The translations under genes and the position numbers were made by a program. Below the pieces are notes generated by a model, which was not told the DNA's origin, made no database searches, and worked only from the letters and a program-made list of their open reading frames with translations. A stretch of DNA of 64,000 bases from Deroplatys truncata (taxonomy: Eukaryota; Arthropoda; Insecta; Mantodea; Mantidae). Location: contig CM060978.1 of the NCBI GenBank assembly GCA_030765065.1, forward strand, positions 109,301,192 through 109,365,191, given 5' to 3'. Within the stretch, counting starts at the first letter, position 1. Each line of letters starts with the position of its first letter. Below are positions 16,004 through 56,605 of the stretch, piece after piece.

Positions 16004-16595
16004 AACCACTTTTTACTTTTTCTGCCACGAGAAGGTATTGCATTCGACACAAAACTTCAATACCGAGATTTCACCGGAAAAACATGTTTTGAGGCCCTTG
16101 AATCCAAAATAGGTATTTTTAGGAGAAAGGCCCGTGTTTGTGTGTGTCTGTGAACAGCGTAACCCAAAAACGAAAATTCGGATAAATACCACACTTGGTA
16201 TTTAAAATCAGTATCTTCCAAATGCGAAACGAAGATTTTCAAAAAAATTCCCCATCCCAACCACCAATACGTAATATTTTTCGAAATTTGTATTTTCTTA
16301 AAAAATGGCTTTAAGAATTTTGATTAAAATATATATATATATATATATATTAGCGATATTTACATGCCAAATAAACGTTATATCTTGAATTTTTGGGGAA
16401 TAGCCTGCAAAGTCCTCTTCATTCGGAATTTTATATAATGCATAATTGGTAAACGTTAAGCGATAGACGAAAACGCACTGCTCAAAAAAATGTAGATCTC
16501 TTTAAAACACAATTGATTTCAAATAATCTTTTTTTAGCATTAGCTGTTTCCGCAGATGTCCGTTATTAATGGTTTTAATTCTTGAATTCTCTGAA

Positions 16596-18875
16596 CACTA
16601 GTCTGCATTTTCAAACTTTTTGTCAGATGATTTCTTAATATTAGGTGTTCTTTAATCAAGTTTTATGCTGATTTCAGAAATAACTTCCGTTTTCTTCTAT
16701 CACATCAGGTTTTTACACAAAATAAGAAGTAATGTTTTGACAATTTTACTAATGAGCGTAGAAAAGTATTCAAATACCATTTCACACAAGATAAGTTTTT
16801 ATTCAAGAAACATTTTAAGAATACTCTCAAGAAATCCCCTAATTTATTTCATGACTACATTTTAACAAAACAAGCAGCCAAAGTGATTCATTTAAATTTT
16901 TTCAAACTTTCTCTTCTTCGACTTCCTTGCAGATCCTTGAAGATGACTGTCCCTCCTCAAAATCCAACAGTATTCGGCCATCATAGTTTCATTCCATCTC
17001 CCCTGGTACCACCTCTTCATTTCCTTAATATCTTGATGAAAACGTACACCTACTCTTCACTATAATGTCCTAGATTTTCTGGAAAGTAGTCGATATGTGA
17101 ATGCAGAAAATGCACCTTTACACTCATGTTACAACCAATCTTCTTGAAATTTTCCAACATTGTTTCGACAATGTCCTTATAATTAGGATCTTTGTTATTG
17201 CCTAAGAAGTTTTCAGTAACTGATCGGAAGGCGGTCCAGGCTTCTATTTCTCTCTCATTCGTTGTCTTCTCAAAATCTTCATCCTTCATCAATTTCTTTA
17301 TTTGAGGACCAACAAAAATTCCATCCTTTAATTTGTCTTGTGTATTTAAGGGAAATTTCTTGGAAAGTTACTTGAAGCAGGGTCCATCCTGTGGTAGAGC
17401 CCTTACAAATTGCTTCATCAAGCCCAATTTTATGTGTAGTGGAGGAACCAATATCTTTTGTCTCTCTACAGGATGTTTTTAGTTCCAGGCAACAAGTTTC
17501 TCCGCTGTGGCCATAATTTTACAATCCAATATTTTTGCTTTGCCCGACTCTCCCATTCGCATAGAAAACAAGGCATTTTTGTGAACCCAGCTTGTTATTC
17601 TAATAGTATCCCAATAACTTTGAAATCACCGCAGATACGCCATTTGTGTCCCTCGTATTGGATACTTGTTAAAAGTATCTTTACGTTTTCAACTGTCTCT
17701 TTCATTTAAATTGAATGTGCAACAGGAATGGACCCATACACATTCCCATTATGCAGTAACTCGCCTTTCAGGCTCCTCTTTGAGATAAGAAGTCTCCACT
17801 GAGTAGGATCATGTTCAATGCCATAAAAGTGCATTAACTCGTTTATGTTATTGCAGTAAACCAAGGACTCGATCTGTGAGAAAAAAAGGAACTACCTCTT
17901 GTTCTCTGTATCTGTACCATGAGTAATGTGTTCCTGGTTCCAGAAGATTCTTATTTTTAAGACGGGAGCCTAGTAACTCTGCAGATTCCTTAGACAAATT
18001 CAAATCACGCACTAGATCATTTAGTTCACTCTGAGAGAACAGTTGTGGCGTCACGTCGTATTCAGGATGGTAGACATCATCAGAATCGTCTTCGGTGATT
18101 GCATGAGGTTCACTTTCAACACCATCTTCTTCCAAGTTCTCTAAAACAGCTGGAGGAAGAGGAGCAGGTAGATCTTCTCTGTGTGGAACTGGCCTGATGG
18201 CTGAAGGAATACTTGGATACACAATGTGTTTCTTATTTTTCGAATTGCACCCCTGAACATTAACTAAACAGAAATAACAGTATTTAAGGTGATCTTTAGG
18301 CTCCCTCCACACCATAGAAATTCCAAATGGCTTGCATGATTTCTTTCCTTTTATCCAAATCTTAACCTCTCAATACAATAGCGGCAAACTGTCTTTGGAG
18401 CCCAGGCCTTGTCTTGGTCACCAAGTTTCATTTTAAAATAAGCATGGTACACTTTTTTCACAAAGTCTGTTATATCAGTTCTCTGCTGAAGCACTGTATA
18501 ATTTCCACAAATGTAGCAGAAAACATTTGGATTGTTCACACACTTGCGTGTAGACATAATGTATTTATAACTTCAATCACGATATAGCACTGGTAATGCA
18601 ATCCTCTGATATTAACAACAGCCTAAATTACAAATAGCAACCAGCATCTACAGGTGTAACAACTTAAAGACTCACAAGTATGTATTGAGAAATTTCCCTC
18701 CAAGAAGTGATAAATTTCCCTTCATCATCTACTGGCTCAACTCTACATTTTTGAAGTGAAATTGTGAAAAAACCGCATGTGATAGAAAAAACTAAAAGCA
18801 GTTCTGAAATCAGCATAAAAAGTGAGTCAGAATCACTTATTAGTTTTTATTCATCCGATATCATGCAGACTAGCG
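16596..18875 (-). mobile_element. Terminal-inverted-repeat element carrying a Cys-rich gene
   Basis: The left end CACTAGTCTGCAT (16596-16608) mirrors the right end ATGCAGACTAGCG (18863-18875). Inverted similarity continues for roughly 130 bases: 'ttttatgctgatttcaga' and 'ctatcacat' on the left (16661-16725) match the complement of 18761-18820. The gene fills the interior on the minus strand. The flanks are the two halves of one repeat H copy, so this is a discrete insertion. I cannot fix the target duplication (gaa on the left, taa on the right). The CACTA start hints at the CMC/EnSpm group, but nothing else proves it. Confidence 0.75.
16899..18557 (-). pseudogene. Cys-rich repetitive arthropod protein, function unknown
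   Basis: The start is the ATG at 18555-18557. The reading proceeds MSTRKCVNNPNVFCYICG (Cys pairs), WAPKTVCRYC, MVWREPKDH with CYFC, an acidic segment (TEDDSDDVYHPEY), LNDLVRDLNLSKESAELLG, an LVYCNNINELM block, KMPCFLCEWE, LHIKLGLMKQFV, IDYFPENLGHYSE, RFHQD, and WYQGRWNETMMAEYCW. It ends in a basic KSKKRKFEK tail with a stop near 16899. This order matches a highly multiplied family annotated as uncharacterised in many arthropods. The CxxC pairs suggest metal binding. About 550 codons survive, but at least two frameshifts (after RLRFG; after GHYSEE) and several in-frame stops inactivate it. The copy lies inside terminal inverted repeats, so it is probably transposon-encoded. Confidence 0.8.
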
Positions 18876-19105
18876 TAAAGTAGTTTAAAGTACTGTCGAT
18901 ATTCAGATGTTTCTCTTAAACATTTGACTAACGCTATTCCCTTTACATTTACAACGAAATATGTAATGTAGTTACTTCTGCAAAGGTTTTTTTCTCGATT
19001 AAAATGAAATAGATAGAAAAATAGCTTTCGTAAGAAAAGTTTCTATAACCATTAATAAATGATAGAGAGTAGAGAACTTCATGTGAATGTAACCTAGATT
19101 TTTTC

Positions 19106-29756: not shown

Positions 29757-29869
29757 GAAAACTCTTATGTGTTGTATTCACATGGCTTTCATACTCTTCC
29801 ACAAACCGCGCTTACAAGTATTATTCTTCTCTTATTCTTACCATAAATTACTTATTATTCTTGTTAACC

Positions 29870-29912
<43 letters not shown>

Positions 29913-30000
29913 TTTCATTACTACTTTTCTACAAACTATGCTTACAAATCTTACTCTTCTCTTATTCTTCCTATTAATTATTAACTATTCTTATTAAGTC

Positions 30001-30040
<40 letters not shown>

Positions 30041-30960
30041 ATTGCTATTGCTTTCTCTACTACTCTTCTACAAACTATGCTTACAAATCTTATTCTTCCC
30101 TTAATCTTTCTATTAATTAATTATTATTCTTATTAAATCTATTATTATTGTTGTTGTTGTTGCTGTTGTTGATTTTGTCTTCCCTAATACTCTTCTACAA
30201 ACTATGCTTACAAATCTTATTCTTCTCTTATCGTCCCTATAAATTACTGATTATTCTTATTAACCATATTATTATTATAATTATTATTATTGTTGTTTTC
30301 TGTACTACTATTCTACAAAAAGTCTTACAGGTCCTATTCTTCTCTTATCCGTCCTATTAATTAATGATTATTCTTATTAACTCTAATATTATTGTTGATG
30401 TTTTCCCTACTACTCTTCTACAAACTATGCTTACAAATATTATTCTTCTCCTATCCTTCCTATTAATTACTGATAATTCTTATTAACTCTATTACTATTG
30501 TTGTTGATGTTGTTTTCTGTACTACTCTTCTACACACTATGCTTACAAATATTCTTCGCTTATCCTTCCTATTAATTACTGATTATTCTTATTTTCTCTA
30601 TTATTTTTATTATTAATATTATTATTGTTTTCTCTACTAACTCTTCTACAAACTATGCTTACAAATATTATGCTTCTCTTATCGTTCCTATAAATTACTG
30701 ATTATTCTTATTAACTCTATTATTATTGTTATTGTTATTCTTTTCTCTACTATTCTTTACTACTCTTCTACAAACTATGCTTACAAATATTTTTCTTCAC
30801 TTATCCTTCCTATTAATTACTGATTATTGTTATTATCTCTATTATTATTATTAGTAGTAGTAGTAGTAGTATTGTTGTTGGTTCCTCTGGTACTCCTCTA
30901 CAAACTATGTTTACAAATCTTATTCTTCTCTTATTCTTCCTATTATTCTTATTAAATATC

Positions 30961-30997
<37 letters not shown>

Positions 30998-32005
30998 GTT
31001 GTTTTCCCTACTAATCCTCTACAAACTATGCTTTCAAATCTTATTCTTCTCTTATTCTTCCTATTATTCTTATTAAATCTCTATTATTATTAATATTATT
31101 ATTGCTTTCTCTACTACTCTTCTACAAACTATACTTACAAATCTTATTCTTCTCTTATTCTTCCTATTATTATCAATTCTCTATTATTATTATTATTGTT
31201 AATATTATTATTGCTTTCTCTACTATTTTTCTACAAACTAGGTTTGCGAAGTTTATTCTTGTTATTAATTTCTTATTATCCTTAGTATTTTTTATTATAA
31301 TGCTTATTAATCTAGATAAACTTAATTTAACTACAGATTTACAACTTGGTTGTACTTGTAAGATGAATATAGTAAGCTAAAGCGATAATAAAACTTTTAA
31401 AAAGCTGGTCGCTATGTGATGGCTTTAAAATTCTGTTCCCTTTGCATGACCAAAATAAGGAAATGAATAGCAACTTCTATTGGAAAAACGCAGAATAAGG
31501 GTTTGCATATTCAGGCTAATAACAAGTAATATCTCGGAAACAGTTAAGGCCAAAAAACGGTTTGTCATAAATTGCGTGCTTTAACGAGATCCCATAAATT
31601 TACCAAGTATACAAAAGTTATTGAAAATAAACAAGCACTTCAAGCCTAATCGAAGAACATTCAAGATATACATTTTATTTGTGATGAAAATATCTTAATC
31701 ATGTAATTTTTTAATGAAAATCGTTAATGTAAAGTATAGTTTTGGGGGATTTTCTTGAAAGTCTTCGTGTCGTGTTCCTGTAAGATGTTGAACTTAAATA
31801 CCAAATTTTGTATTCATCTAACTTATTATTTTTTAGTTATGCTGTTCACAGACACACACATTTTTATAAAAGGCACCTTTTTGATTTGTTCAGGGAGCCC
31901 CAAAGCATTTTCGGTGAAACCTCGTTATCCAGCTCTCATTATCATTGTAAACGGAATACAATAGGTACTTGCTCTATTTATAGGTAGTGGTAGAGAAAGT
32001 AAAAA
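29757..32005 (-). mobile_element. Repeat H copy expanded by an internal satellite
   Basis: Read on the minus strand, the 5' inverted repeat is at the right border (ggtagagaaagtaaaaag, about 31989-32005). The middle blocks run back to about 31385. The 3' terminus is at the left border: 'tcttatgtgttgtattcac' then 'atggctttcatactcttcc' at about 29762-29800, recognisable as the hairpin end. Between these lies a tandem array of about 1.5 kb. Without the array the element would be near the usual ~850 bases. Confidence 0.7.
29790..31265. repeat. Minisatellite, 13 units of ~100-135 bases
   Basis: Each unit has a conserved core of about 75 bases (ctactcttctacaaactatg, then cttacaaatcttattcttc, ctattaattactgattattc) and a (TTA)n spacer of varying length. 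The cores begin near 29797, 29926, 30059, 30187, 30305, 30411, 30521, 30639, 30763, 30891, 31013, 31115 and 31221. The core resembles the 3' terminal text of repeat H (tctctactcttgtacaaact), and the array lies within such a copy. Confidence 0.92.
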
Positions 32006-33334: not shown

Positions 33335-34731
33335 CACTGCCATTTGTGAAAATTGCAACACCAAGAAAGAATTTCCCGAATATCTCCAAACTTGGTGGAA
33401 GTGTAGAAGAGTGTGCAAGTAATAAATGATTAGGTTTGCAGAGAGATGGGGTACACGTAGGACGAGCAGAGCCCTCTCGTGTCGGTCCGACAACGTCAGT
33501 GTTGCGCCCAGTGTAGTCAGTGCAGAGCTGTCAAACAAGGTGGAAACAATAAAGTGACAGCCAGTATGCATCGTCGACGTCAAAGGGAGCCATATCGGCA
33601 TGCGACTGAGTTCGAACGGGTCAGAATGATCGGTCTCCGGGAAGCGGGTTTGTAATACCGTGAAATTTCGGCTCGTACAGGGCATGCTGCTACGACATTG
33701 ATGCGTGCGTGAAAGCAGTGGATAGATGAAGGTCGTACGCAGCGAAGAGCGGGTACTGGACCACAGAACATGACCACAGCACGGAATGGCCGTCATCTTG
33801 TCCGCATGGTCATAAGGGACCGTACAGCTTCATCCACAGTGTTGGCTCGACGCTGGAGCACTGTAACAGGTGTGAACGTGTCTGCATCAACGGTTCGTCG
33901 CCATCTGCTGCATGATGGACCTGTTGCATGCATGCCATTACGTCGGCTTCCATTGTCCAGACACCACAACCTCCTTCGAATGCAATGGGCACGTGAACAC
34001 CGTCACTGGGGTGCTGAGTGGCCAAATGTAGTCTTTTTGGACGAGTCCCGCTTCAACGTGTCCTACAGTGATGGCCGCATACGTGTCCGGCGGTACCGTG
34101 GTGAGTGCAACCCGGAGGACTGCATTGTTGAGCGGCATAGCGGACAAACACCAGGTGTGATGGTTTGGGGCACCATTGGTTACAACAACGATCTCGCCTC
34201 CTACGATTTGAGGCCACTTTGAGCAGCAACCGGTACCTAACGGTGATTGTAGAGCCTGGGGTACTCCCCTTGCTTCAGGCATCTCCACAGGCCACATTTC
34301 AACAGGACAATGCCCAGCCAATTTTGCGAGGAATGTACAAGCCTTCTTCGAAGAGCGAGGGGTATCATTGCATCCCTGGCCTGCACGTTCGCCTGACATG
34401 TCGCCCATCGAACATGTCTGGGATATGGTTGATCAGCACCTGGTGCGTCACGGTCCTCTAGTAATGCGTGTCACGGATTTGTGGGCTCGAATACAAACTG
34501 CGTGGAGGGAAATCCCTCAGGAACTTATTCGGAACCTTTTTGATTCAATGCCACGGCGTATAGCAGCTCTAATTGCAGCGCATGGAGGTCACACCAAATA
34601 CTGAATATTAGGGTTCAAAGGTCATTAATAGATTTGAAAAGTTTATCATTTGTTACTTGTGATGTACCTAACCTGTGATATTAAATTCATCGAATTCATG
34701 CGTTTCCTTCTTGGTGTTGCAAACGGCAGTG
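33335..34731 (+). mobile_element. Tc1-family DNA transposon, copy 2
   Basis: The ends are CACTGCCATTTGTG on the left and CAAACGGCAGTG on the right, with TA on both sides (33333-33334, 34732-34733). The copy is 1397 bp and belongs to the same family as 10393-11720. It is the better preserved copy. Confidence 0.95.
33566..34604 (+). pseudogene. Tc1-type transposase, nearly complete but broken
   Basis: Start at 33566 (MHRRRQREPYRHATEFER). The N-terminal HTH reads on with TAA in 'REAGL*YREI' and TGA in 'TLMRA*KQW'. A long open stretch follows from 33770, with a second HTH (TASSTVLARRWSTVTGVNVS). The catalytic core shows D1 in VFLDESRFN, then VMVWGTIGYNN. A frame change follows, then D2 in FQQDNAQP and, after another frame change, the E in PDMSPIEHVWDM. 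It ends GGHTKY*. The DD34E residues are all present, but two stops and at least two frameshifts mean no active enzyme. Family length is about 340 residues, which this would match. Confidence 0.92.
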
Positions 34732-54995: not shown

Positions 54996-56605
54996 CAGAA
55001 TGCAACAAAAATGTACGGCACAAATTGCAAGACATATCCCTCACGTTATATGAACGTGGGTCTGGAAACGCTGTTACCATGTTACAACTCATTTTCTCCA
55101 ACTCATTAATAATGGGAAAAACACAAGAATAGAACGTACCAGCATACCACATGCAACTCTTTCTCACAGGAGATGTTCAATATGCCCTCCGTGAGCATTG
55201 ATACATGCATCAACCCGCCGTCGTAGTGAATCCCGGATGCGCTGATGTATCCCTGGAGTATTACGTATGGTTTCGTAGCCTTCCACAATACGGACACCGA
55301 GACTCTGAACATCTGGTACTAGGTTTCGATACACAAGAGCTTTCAAATGCCTCCACAAATAAAAGTCCAGTGGGTTTAGGTTCGGGGAGCGTGGAGGCCA
55401 GGCAATTGGTCCACCTCTACCTATCTATCTGTCAACGAATCTGTTATTTAGAAGCCGACAGACATTAACACTAAAATGAGGAGGTGCTCCATCGTGCATG
55501 AAGTACATGTTTTGTCGCATAGCTAAAGGCACTTCTGCTAACAGATCAGGACATTCTCTACGAAATTATGGTAACTTTGTCCGTTGTGCCTGGATGGAAG
55601 AACGTGAGGCCCTACCAAATAGTCATCAACAATGTCAGCCCAAACAATGACAGAAAATCTTTGTTGATGACTTGCTTCTACAGTTGCGTGACGATTGACT
55701 TCAGTCCATACATGCTAATTGTGATAATTTATAATCTGATCTCGTTGAAACGACTGTAAACAGCACTGTTGCACTAAAATTAGAGTTGACACTTTGTTGC
55801 ATAAACCATTTGCAGAAGCGTACCCTTGCATGAAAATCAGCTGCTGATAGTGCCTGAACATGCTGTAAATGGTATGGATACAGCCGACCTCGTGTAAGAC
55901 TCGTCAGACAGTCAAGTGGTCAACATTCATTGTTGCACCTACTTGTCTTGAACTGACTCTAGGGTTGCCATCAACTGTCTGAAGAATTGCCGCCTCCCGT
56001 TGCGATGTTCTCTTCCTTCTAGGCCTGCCCCGGTCGCGAGTATCAGGCTGAAATGCCCCATGTTCCCTAAGACGACGATCAATGGCTTCAAACGTTTTCC
56101 TGTCGGGGCACCTTCGTCCTGGAAATCTCTCCCGGTACAAACGTTGAGCGCAAGCGCCACTGTCGTCTGCTAAACCATACATCAAATGGGCATTTGCCAT
56201 CTCTGGATTTGTGTACACTGCCATTGCACGAGCCAAGTCTGTGATCAACTCTACTAGTACGTAGTAACCTGTGTGCTTGCCAAGGTCGTATTGCTCACTG
56301 GAACAGTTGATATTACCTGTAAACAAGCAATGACGTAAGTCGCATGGCAACAGGGACATGTAAAACAAAACACTGGCGGTGCACCTAGGACAACGACAAC
56401 GTAACCAGATGTAACCAAGAGTGCATGTTCCCCATGATTCTAACATTCTGTTGGTGTGTGTTTCCCATGATTAATGAGTTGGAGAAAATGAGTTGTAACA
56501 TGGAAACAAAACGTTTCCAGACCCATGTTCATATAACATAATTTATTCGTCTACGTGTGAGGAATGTGTCCTGCAATCTGTGCCGTACATTTTTGTTACA
56601 TTCTG
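54996..56605 (-). mobile_element. DNA transposon with ~140-base inverted repeats
   Basis: The left end CAGAATGCAACAAAAATG mirrors the right end CATTTTTGTTACATTCTG. TA flanks it on both sides (54994-54995, 56606-56607). Inverted similarity extends about 140 bases, to 'caactcattaat.atgggaa'. The right repeat carries about 30 bases that the left lacks (around 'cgtctacgtgtgagg'). The element is 1610 bp and encodes the transposase remnant at 55164-56224. Confidence 0.92.
55164..56224 (-). pseudogene. Tc1/mariner-type transposase with DUF4817-like N-terminus
   Basis: Start at 56222-56224 (MAVYTNPEMANAHLMYG). The N-terminal HTH reads CAQRLYRERFPGRRCPDRKT, then FEAIDRRLREHGAF, then a basic GRPRRKR linker and SSRQVGATMNVDHLTV. 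A TGA then replaces an expected tryptophan, and a frameshift follows RVLHEV; the reading goes on as YPYHLQHVQALSAADFHARV. The core is badly broken between 55400 and 55800. The C-terminus is readable as HLKALVYRNLVPDVQSLGVR and RIRDSLRRRVDACINAHGGH. The protein would have cut and joined at TA sites, but this copy is dead. Confidence 0.88.

What the first reader, a model, noticed from the sequence alone, without database searches (positions are those of the whole stretch)
16596..18875. A Cys-rich 'uncharacterised' arthropod gene family sits within terminal inverted repeats
The gene fills the interior of a unit with ~130-base inverted ends (CACTAGTCTGCAT...), and the unit splits a repeat H copy cleanly. 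The protein family is widespread and multicopy in arthropods by my recollection, without known function. The arrangement indicates that it is carried by, and may encode the transposase or accessory factor of, a DNA transposon that I cannot assign to a superfamily.
Basis: partly seen in the sequence, partly recalled or inferred. Interest (0 to 1): 0.8.

Follow-up and report, generated by a model that had tools for sequence, protein, structure and literature searches.

The report
Chapaev3 DNA transposon, dead copy
The gene between inverted ends is the decayed transposase of a Chapaev3-type cut-and-paste transposon that is abundant in this genome; it is a known kind of mobile element, so the find is ordinary, though its cysteine-bearing front end faintly resembles a domain of insect gene regulators.

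Summary
Of 64 copies with both ends, 44 have an exact 3-bp target duplication (39 TTA or TAA), none a 4-bp one; A precedes it in 54, T follows in 57. Ends read CAC in 53 and GTG in 54 (46 both). The gene is one intronless frame of ~561 codons in the copies' majority reading, with C(2)C, LH and H(4)H motifs and a candidate D259/D313/E511 triad. These are published hallmarks of Chapaev3 transposons (Chapaev-Mirage-CACTA group): the gene is the transposase and the superfamily can be assigned. The window copy is dead: frameshifts, stops, first D deleted, E replaced by V. A uniform ~1.0-kb internal-deletion form also exists. The N-terminal Cys module weakly resembles the insect ZAD domain, below Pfam's cut-off. 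New member of a known kind.

The parts
16596..18875 (-). whole Chapaev3-type element (coding strand is minus), 2,280 bp
   Evidence: same ends in 64 copies held
16596..16720 (+). left inverted end, CACTAGTCTGCAT...
   Evidence: score 100 against at most 58 in 500 shuffles
18762..18875 (-). right inverted end; its reverse complement starts CGCTAGTCTGCAT in this copy, where most copies have CACTAG
16593..16595 (.). left 3-bp target duplication, GAA
   Evidence: differs from the right copy at one base
18876..18878 (.). right 3-bp target duplication, TAA
18357..18557 (-). transposase residues 1-67: N-terminal Cys module (C14, C17, C58, C61), weakly ZAD-like, possibly the published 'Chapa' zinc domain
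17881..18366 (-). transposase residues 65-226, second frame
17469..17885 (-). transposase residues 225-365, third frame, 2 stops inside; D2 codon 17625-17627, C(2)C codons 17568-17570 and 17559-17561; the first D is lost in a 2-codon gap near 17784
17053..17469 (-). transposase residues 370-508, 1 stop inside; LH (His codon 17434-17436) and H(4)H (17110-17112, 17095-17097)
16991..17050 (-). transposase residues 510-529; the candidate catalytic E codon 17045-17047 reads V in this copy
18884..19104 (.). right part of the same repeat

Best explanation
This is an inactive copy of a high-copy Chapaev3 DNA transposon (Chapaev-Mirage-CACTA group of DDE transposases). The source elements coded one intronless transposase of about 561 residues. 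The N-terminal Cys module and following region are inferred to bind zinc and the ~120-bp ends and to bring two transposases together. [quoted passage not shown] repair of the gap gives the 3-bp TWA duplication. Shown here: ends, target site, 3-bp duplication, uninterrupted copies of the host repeat, copy multiplicity, the frame and its motifs, decay of the window copy. Inferred: catalysis, fold, zinc and DNA binding.
For: Other copies in the same genome share ends and length. 3-bp TSD exact in 44 of 64 copies, against a mean of 18.9 and a maximum of 31 in 5,000 partner shuffles; 39 are TWA; 0 of 64 with 4 bp; A before in 54 and T after in 57 of 64. CAC at one end in 53, GTG at the other in 54, both in 46 of 64. 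Three of six uninterrupted repeat copies fit a 3-bp gain without any gap near the junction. In 37 full-length copies the majority reading holds one open frame of 566 codons, 561 from the ATG. Motif residues in the rows of alignment A3 that cover each position: D1 17 of 19, D2 16 of 16, C(2)C 15 of 18 and 18 of 18, LH 22 of 22, H(4)H 20 of 21 and 20 of 21, E 15 of 17. Published Chapaev3 hallmarks match: TWA between A and T, CAC/GTG termini, 2,289 bp and 556 aa for Garfield_BM, C(2)C/LH/H(4)H, single exon in most families (PMC4079192, passages and sections 7 and 14 read). C(2)C and H(3-4)H between second D and E are shared by the wider clade (PMC12730594, passages).
Against: No published Chapaev3 protein was available for direct alignment or a tree. 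No sequence library names the protein a transposase: Pfam gave no family for P0001 at E up to 5, NCBIfam none at E up to 1, PDB only chance-level matches. Twenty of 64 copies, the window copy among them, do not have an exact 3-bp duplication, and the window copy lacks the flanking A and T. Fourteen of 78 copies were dropped because an end was missing or fell below my score threshold. In three of six uninterrupted repeat copies a gap lies near the junction, so these do not fix the length gained.
Confidence: 0.93

Rival explanations
1. The element is an EnSpm/CACTA-type transposon proper rather than Chapaev3.
For: Termini read CACTAG and the TSD is 3 bp, both compatible with CACTA elements as published (PMC12730594, passages).
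Against: The target is not free but ATWAT, as reported for Chapaev3 (PMC4079192). The protein gives no Pfam match at E up to 5, although Pfam has models for plant CACTA transposases (recalled). A single intronless ~560-aa frame in a 2.3-kb unit fits Chapaev3.
Confidence: 0.04
2. A PIF/Harbinger-type element with its TWA duplication.
For: The TSD is TWA in 39 of 64 copies, which PIF/Harbinger also makes (recalled).
Against: The CAC/GTG ends, the C(2)C plus H(4)H motifs between second D and E, and the absence of any Pfam transposase match do not fit (PIF end sequences recalled).
Confidence: 0.01
3. A host gene or gene fragment captured by an unrelated non-autonomous transposon.
Against: Thirty-seven copies of 2.1-2.34 kb carry the gene region between the same ends. 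Besides the gene blocks the window copy has no frame longer than 83 codons. Differences between full-length copies show no constraint (ratio 1.03), as expected of copies that decay after insertion while the source stayed coding. Three genome searches, which scored 40 of 2,874, 150 of 15,116 and 82 of 22,486 first-look candidates, gave matches of 70% identity or more; eight of the less similar ones that I read have the same ends or close variants of them. Not every match was read.
Confidence: 0.02

Closest known systems
Chapaev3 transposons Garfield, Merrow and Conan (PMC4079192, 2014; passages and sections 7 and 14 read)
   Same: CAC/GTG termini, TWA duplication between A and T, C(2)C/LH/H(4)H motifs; Garfield_BM is 2,289 bp with a 556-aa transposase; short internal-deletion derivatives exist there too.
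   Different: Here one exon (Garfield and Merrow have two; most Chapaev3 have one). The derivative seen here is ~1.0 kb and keeps the C-terminal coding third. Copy numbers in that paper's table 1 go up to 281; here 150 places including the window's match in one capped search. Sequence identity to those families could not be measured.
Other members of the wider clade: EnSpm/CACTA, Mirage, Chapaev, Transib and RAG1 (PMC12730594 and PMC4411706, passages)
   Same: C(2)C and H(3-4)H between second D and last E, CA..TG termini, TSD of 2 to 5 bp.
   Different: Target preference TWA and length point to Chapaev3; the RING finger of some Chapaevs and of RAG1 was not seen in Pfam scans.
ZAD (zf-AD) domain of arthropod zinc-finger transcription factors, Pfam PF07776
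   Same: The N-terminal module matches over most of the model (profile 2-59 of 75 in L034) in 11 of 14 copies, best E 1.5e-4; 0 of 9 shuffles with Cys kept in place match it.
   Different: L034 scores 18.1 bits against a curated cut-off of 28; the score of the best copy was not shown but must lie below 28 by its E-value (my estimate). The 14 copies are about 90% identical, so they are not independent. Shuffles gave chance matches to other zinc models down to E 0.015. No ZAD structure was found with the profile.

Membership tests
Chapaev3 | 5'-CAC ... GTG-3' termini | tested here: met
   CAC in 53, GTG in 54, both in 46 of 64 copies; hallmark from PMC4079192
Chapaev3 | 3-bp TWA target duplication inserted between A and T | tested here: met
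   44 of 64 exact 3 bp, 39 of them TWA, 0 of 64 with 4 bp, A before 54, T after 57 of 64; the window copy itself is degenerate, GAA/TAA
Chapaev3 | paralogous empty sites with a 3-bp gain | tested here: inconclusive
   38 of 41 pieces run uninterrupted across the site; of six aligned, three fit a 3-bp gain with no gap nearby, three have gaps near the junction; identity only 71-81%
Chapaev3 | C(2)C, LH and H(4)H motifs in the transposase | tested here: met
   C332/C335, H381, H489/H494
Chapaev3 | DDE catalytic triad in an RNase H-like fold | tested here: inconclusive
   candidate D259, D313, E511 by motif order; fold not testable, prediction switched off
Chapaev3 | N-terminal Chapa zinc domain (PMC4411706) | tested here: inconclusive
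   a Cys module is present (C14, C17, C58, C61 and more) with weak zf-AD matches; no Chapa model or sequence was held
Chapaev3 | transposase groups with Chapaev3 in a tree | not testable with these tools
   no published Chapaev transposase sequence was reachable; scans of viral contigs and genome contigs gave no relative
EnSpm/CACTA proper | 2-3 bp TSD and CACTA/G termini | tested here: met
   CACTAG, 3 bp
EnSpm/CACTA proper | match to a CACTA transposase model | tested here: not met
   Pfam returned no family for P0001 at E up to 5; that Pfam holds plant CACTA models is recalled
PIF/Harbinger | TWA TSD together with Harbinger transposase domain | tested here: not met
   TSD fits, no transposase domain match
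Kolobok | 4-bp TTAA duplication (recalled) | tested here: not met
   0 of 64 copies with a 4-bp duplication

The most novel reading that the evidence does not exclude
The N-terminal Cys module of this Chapaev3 transposase is homologous to the ZAD domain of arthropod zinc-finger transcription factors, and the same module is the 'Chapa' domain described in Chapaev, Chapaev3 and the N-terminal part of RAG1 (PMC4411706, passages). One transposase domain would then have fed both the vertebrate V(D)J recombinase and the insect-expanded ZAD regulator family.
Probability: 0.15. Interest if true: 0.65.

Novelty: new member of a known kind. Interest (0 to 1): 0.25.

Why it matters
The family adds an abundant Chapaev3 lineage from a 4.3-Gb genome and gives a likely function, by motif and anatomy, to a protein that Pfam does not name. 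Proteins of this type are, by recall, listed as uncharacterised in many arthropod annotations; labelling them as Chapaev3 transposase would remove a false gene family. If the ZAD likeness held up, it would offer a source for a regulator domain whose origin is, to my knowledge, not settled.

Tried and rejected
Superfamilies considered and rejected or ranked lower: EnSpm/CACTA proper, PIF/Harbinger, Kolobok (see membership test).

Searches that found nothing: plasmids by protein; viral contigs by protein, alignment and DNA pattern; genome contigs by alignment; PDB by sequence and profile, chance-level matches only; NCBIfam; Rfam and tRNA scans of the window. Eight of the less similar protein hits looked like other families, but on reading they are copies of the same family with frameshifts.

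Selection on the ~1-kb derivative: the nonsynonymous/synonymous ratio is 0.74 in 25 derivatives and 1.03 in 37 full-length copies. I do not read this as selection, because all 25 derivatives were found through protein score, which favours copies with few amino-acid changes; only part of the full-length set was chosen so. The weights for transitions in that count were my own choice.

Paper searches, nine in all: Chapaev (138 papers, 30 listed), Chapaev3 (4 papers), Chapa domain (1 paper), ZAD with transposase (3 papers), ZAD with transposon-derived (1 paper). No listing or passage that I saw derives ZAD from a transposase; PMC9810180 (passages) notes a THAP domain, akin to the P-element transposase, in a few ZAD zinc-finger proteins. 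Seen in part only: PMC4079192 (passages, sections 7 and 14); PMC12730594, PMC6004678, PMC4411706, PMC3630058, PMC9810180, PMC8576890 (passages).

Full report
Observation. The ends at 16595-16720 and 18762-18876 align as inverted repeats with score 100, against at most 58 in 500 shuffles. The interior holds one gene on the minus strand, broken into five blocks: 18557-18357, 18366-17881, 17885-17469, 17469-17053 and 17050-16991.

Other copies. The window's genome is held (4.29 Gb, 818 contigs; species not named). Searching it with the unit gave 39 further places among 40 scored of 2,874 first-look candidates. A protein search gave 150 matches, the window's own included, among 150 scored of 15,116 candidates, and a longer protein query gave 93 matches in 82 scored of 22,486 candidates. 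Candidates are not confirmed copies, so the true number is unknown.

Ends and target. I tried 78 copies (the window copy and L009-L086 without L029, which is the window locus); 64 had both ends, and 14 were dropped because an end was missing or below my score threshold. Of the 64, 44 show an exact 3-bp duplication and none a 4-, 5- or 8-bp one; shuffling partners gives a mean of 18.9 and a maximum of 31 in 5,000 trials. Thirty-nine are TTA or TAA. The base before is A in 54 and the base after is T in 57. The first three bases are CAC in 53, the last three GTG in 54, both in 46. By class, the exact count is 22 of 37 full-length copies, 20 of 25 derivatives and 2 of 2 intermediates. In a smaller, overlapping set it was 26 of 40. 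The window copy has GAA and TAA, one mismatch, and lacks the flanking A and T. The sample is not random: the full-length copies come from top DNA and protein hits, and 20 loci (L067-L086) were fetched because they looked like derivatives.

Uninterrupted repeat copies. A 440-base query made of the window copy's two flanks with one 3-nt copy kept found the host repeat elsewhere at 71-86% identity; 38 of 41 matched pieces cross the junction, two of the others are the window's own flanks and one lies to one side. Of six aligned examples, L089, L091 and L094 have no gap within ten columns of the junction; L090 and L093 differ by one base and L092 by more. So the insertion into an older repeat is clear, and a 3-bp gain is favoured but not fixed by these alone; the 64 copies carry that point.

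The gene. In 37 full-length copies the majority reading has one open frame of 566 codons (561 from the ATG) without introns. One copy, L021, keeps 529 codons open but has V at the E position; L040 reads through 560 codons if TAG is read as W but has N at the first D. Motifs in L040 numbering: D259, D313, C332-x-x-C335, H381 in PPLH, H489-x4-H494, E511. Among the rows of a 45-row alignment of copy fragments (A3; some rows come from the same copy) that cover each position, the expected residue is seen in 17 of 19, 16 of 16, 15 of 18 and 18 of 18, 22 of 22, 20 of 21 and 20 of 21, and 15 of 17. The window copy has lost the first D in a 2-codon gap and has V in place of the E, so it cannot be expected to be active. 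Differences from the majority within the last 184 codons of full-length copies are neutral in kind (ratio 1.03, 28 stops), as for copies that decay after insertion. Mean K2P distance to the majority is 3.3% for full-length copies.

Identity. PMC4079192 (passages and sections 7 and 14 read) describes Chapaev3 as having CAC/GTG termini, a TWA duplication between A and T in all Chapaev3 elements its authors examined, C(2)C, LH and H(4)H motifs, and for Garfield_BM 2,289 bp and 556 residues; most Chapaev3 transposases appear to have a single exon. PMC12730594 (passages) gives C(2)C and H(3-4)H between second D and last E, CA..TG termini in most cases and 2-5 bp TSDs for the wider clade that includes RAG1. 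The features that could be tested here agree.

Derivative. Twenty-five of the 64 copies are a uniform form of 949-1,013 bp with its own 3-bp duplications (20 of 25 exact). In the five compared with L021 it lacks coding-strand positions ~140 to ~1425 and keeps both ends and the last third of the gene, with LH, H(4)H and E. Its copies are somewhat closer to each other (K2P 2.5% to their majority). Eleven of 25 keep the retained 184 codons open, against 5 of 37 full-length copies, but the derivatives were selected by protein score, so this is no evidence of a kept function. A truncated transposase acting as an inhibitor is possible and untested.

N-terminus. The first ~70 residues match Pfam zf-AD (ZAD) below the curated cut-off: 11 of 14 N-terminal pieces, best E 1.5e-4; 12 of 45 members of the longer alignment, many of which lack the N-terminus; the window piece at E 0.0083; none for P0001 at full length. 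Nine shuffles that keep every Cys in place gave no zf-AD match. Against this: the copies are about 90% identical and not independent, the same shuffles gave chance matches to other zinc models down to E 0.015, and the real piece in that call scored only E 0.021. A profile of the module found no ZAD structure in the PDB. PMC4411706 (passages) reports a zinc-finger 'Chapa' domain in Chapaev, Chapaev3 and the N-terminal part of RAG1; whether it is this module could not be tested.

Verdict.

Noticed in passing
L041-L044, L046, L047, L049, L055, L067-L071, L073-L075, L077-L079, L081-L086: A uniform ~1.0-kb internal-deletion derivative of the element keeps the C-terminal third of the transposase gene open in 11 of 25 copies; possible inhibitor or simply young.
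   Followed up: partly
window 33770-34222 (+): A 150-codon frame with a Tc1/mariner-like stretch (VVFLDESRF...); likeness from recall only.
   Followed up: no
window 55904-56446 (-): A 180-codon frame with an Arg-rich, helix-turn-helix-like segment of the kind seen in mariner-like insect proteins; likeness from recall only.
   Followed up: no
window 29792-31298: Tandem array of 103-139-bp units mixed with ATT repeats, strongly skewed in base composition (GC 26%, GC skew -0.27 in 30-32 kb).
   Followed up: no
   Followed up: partly
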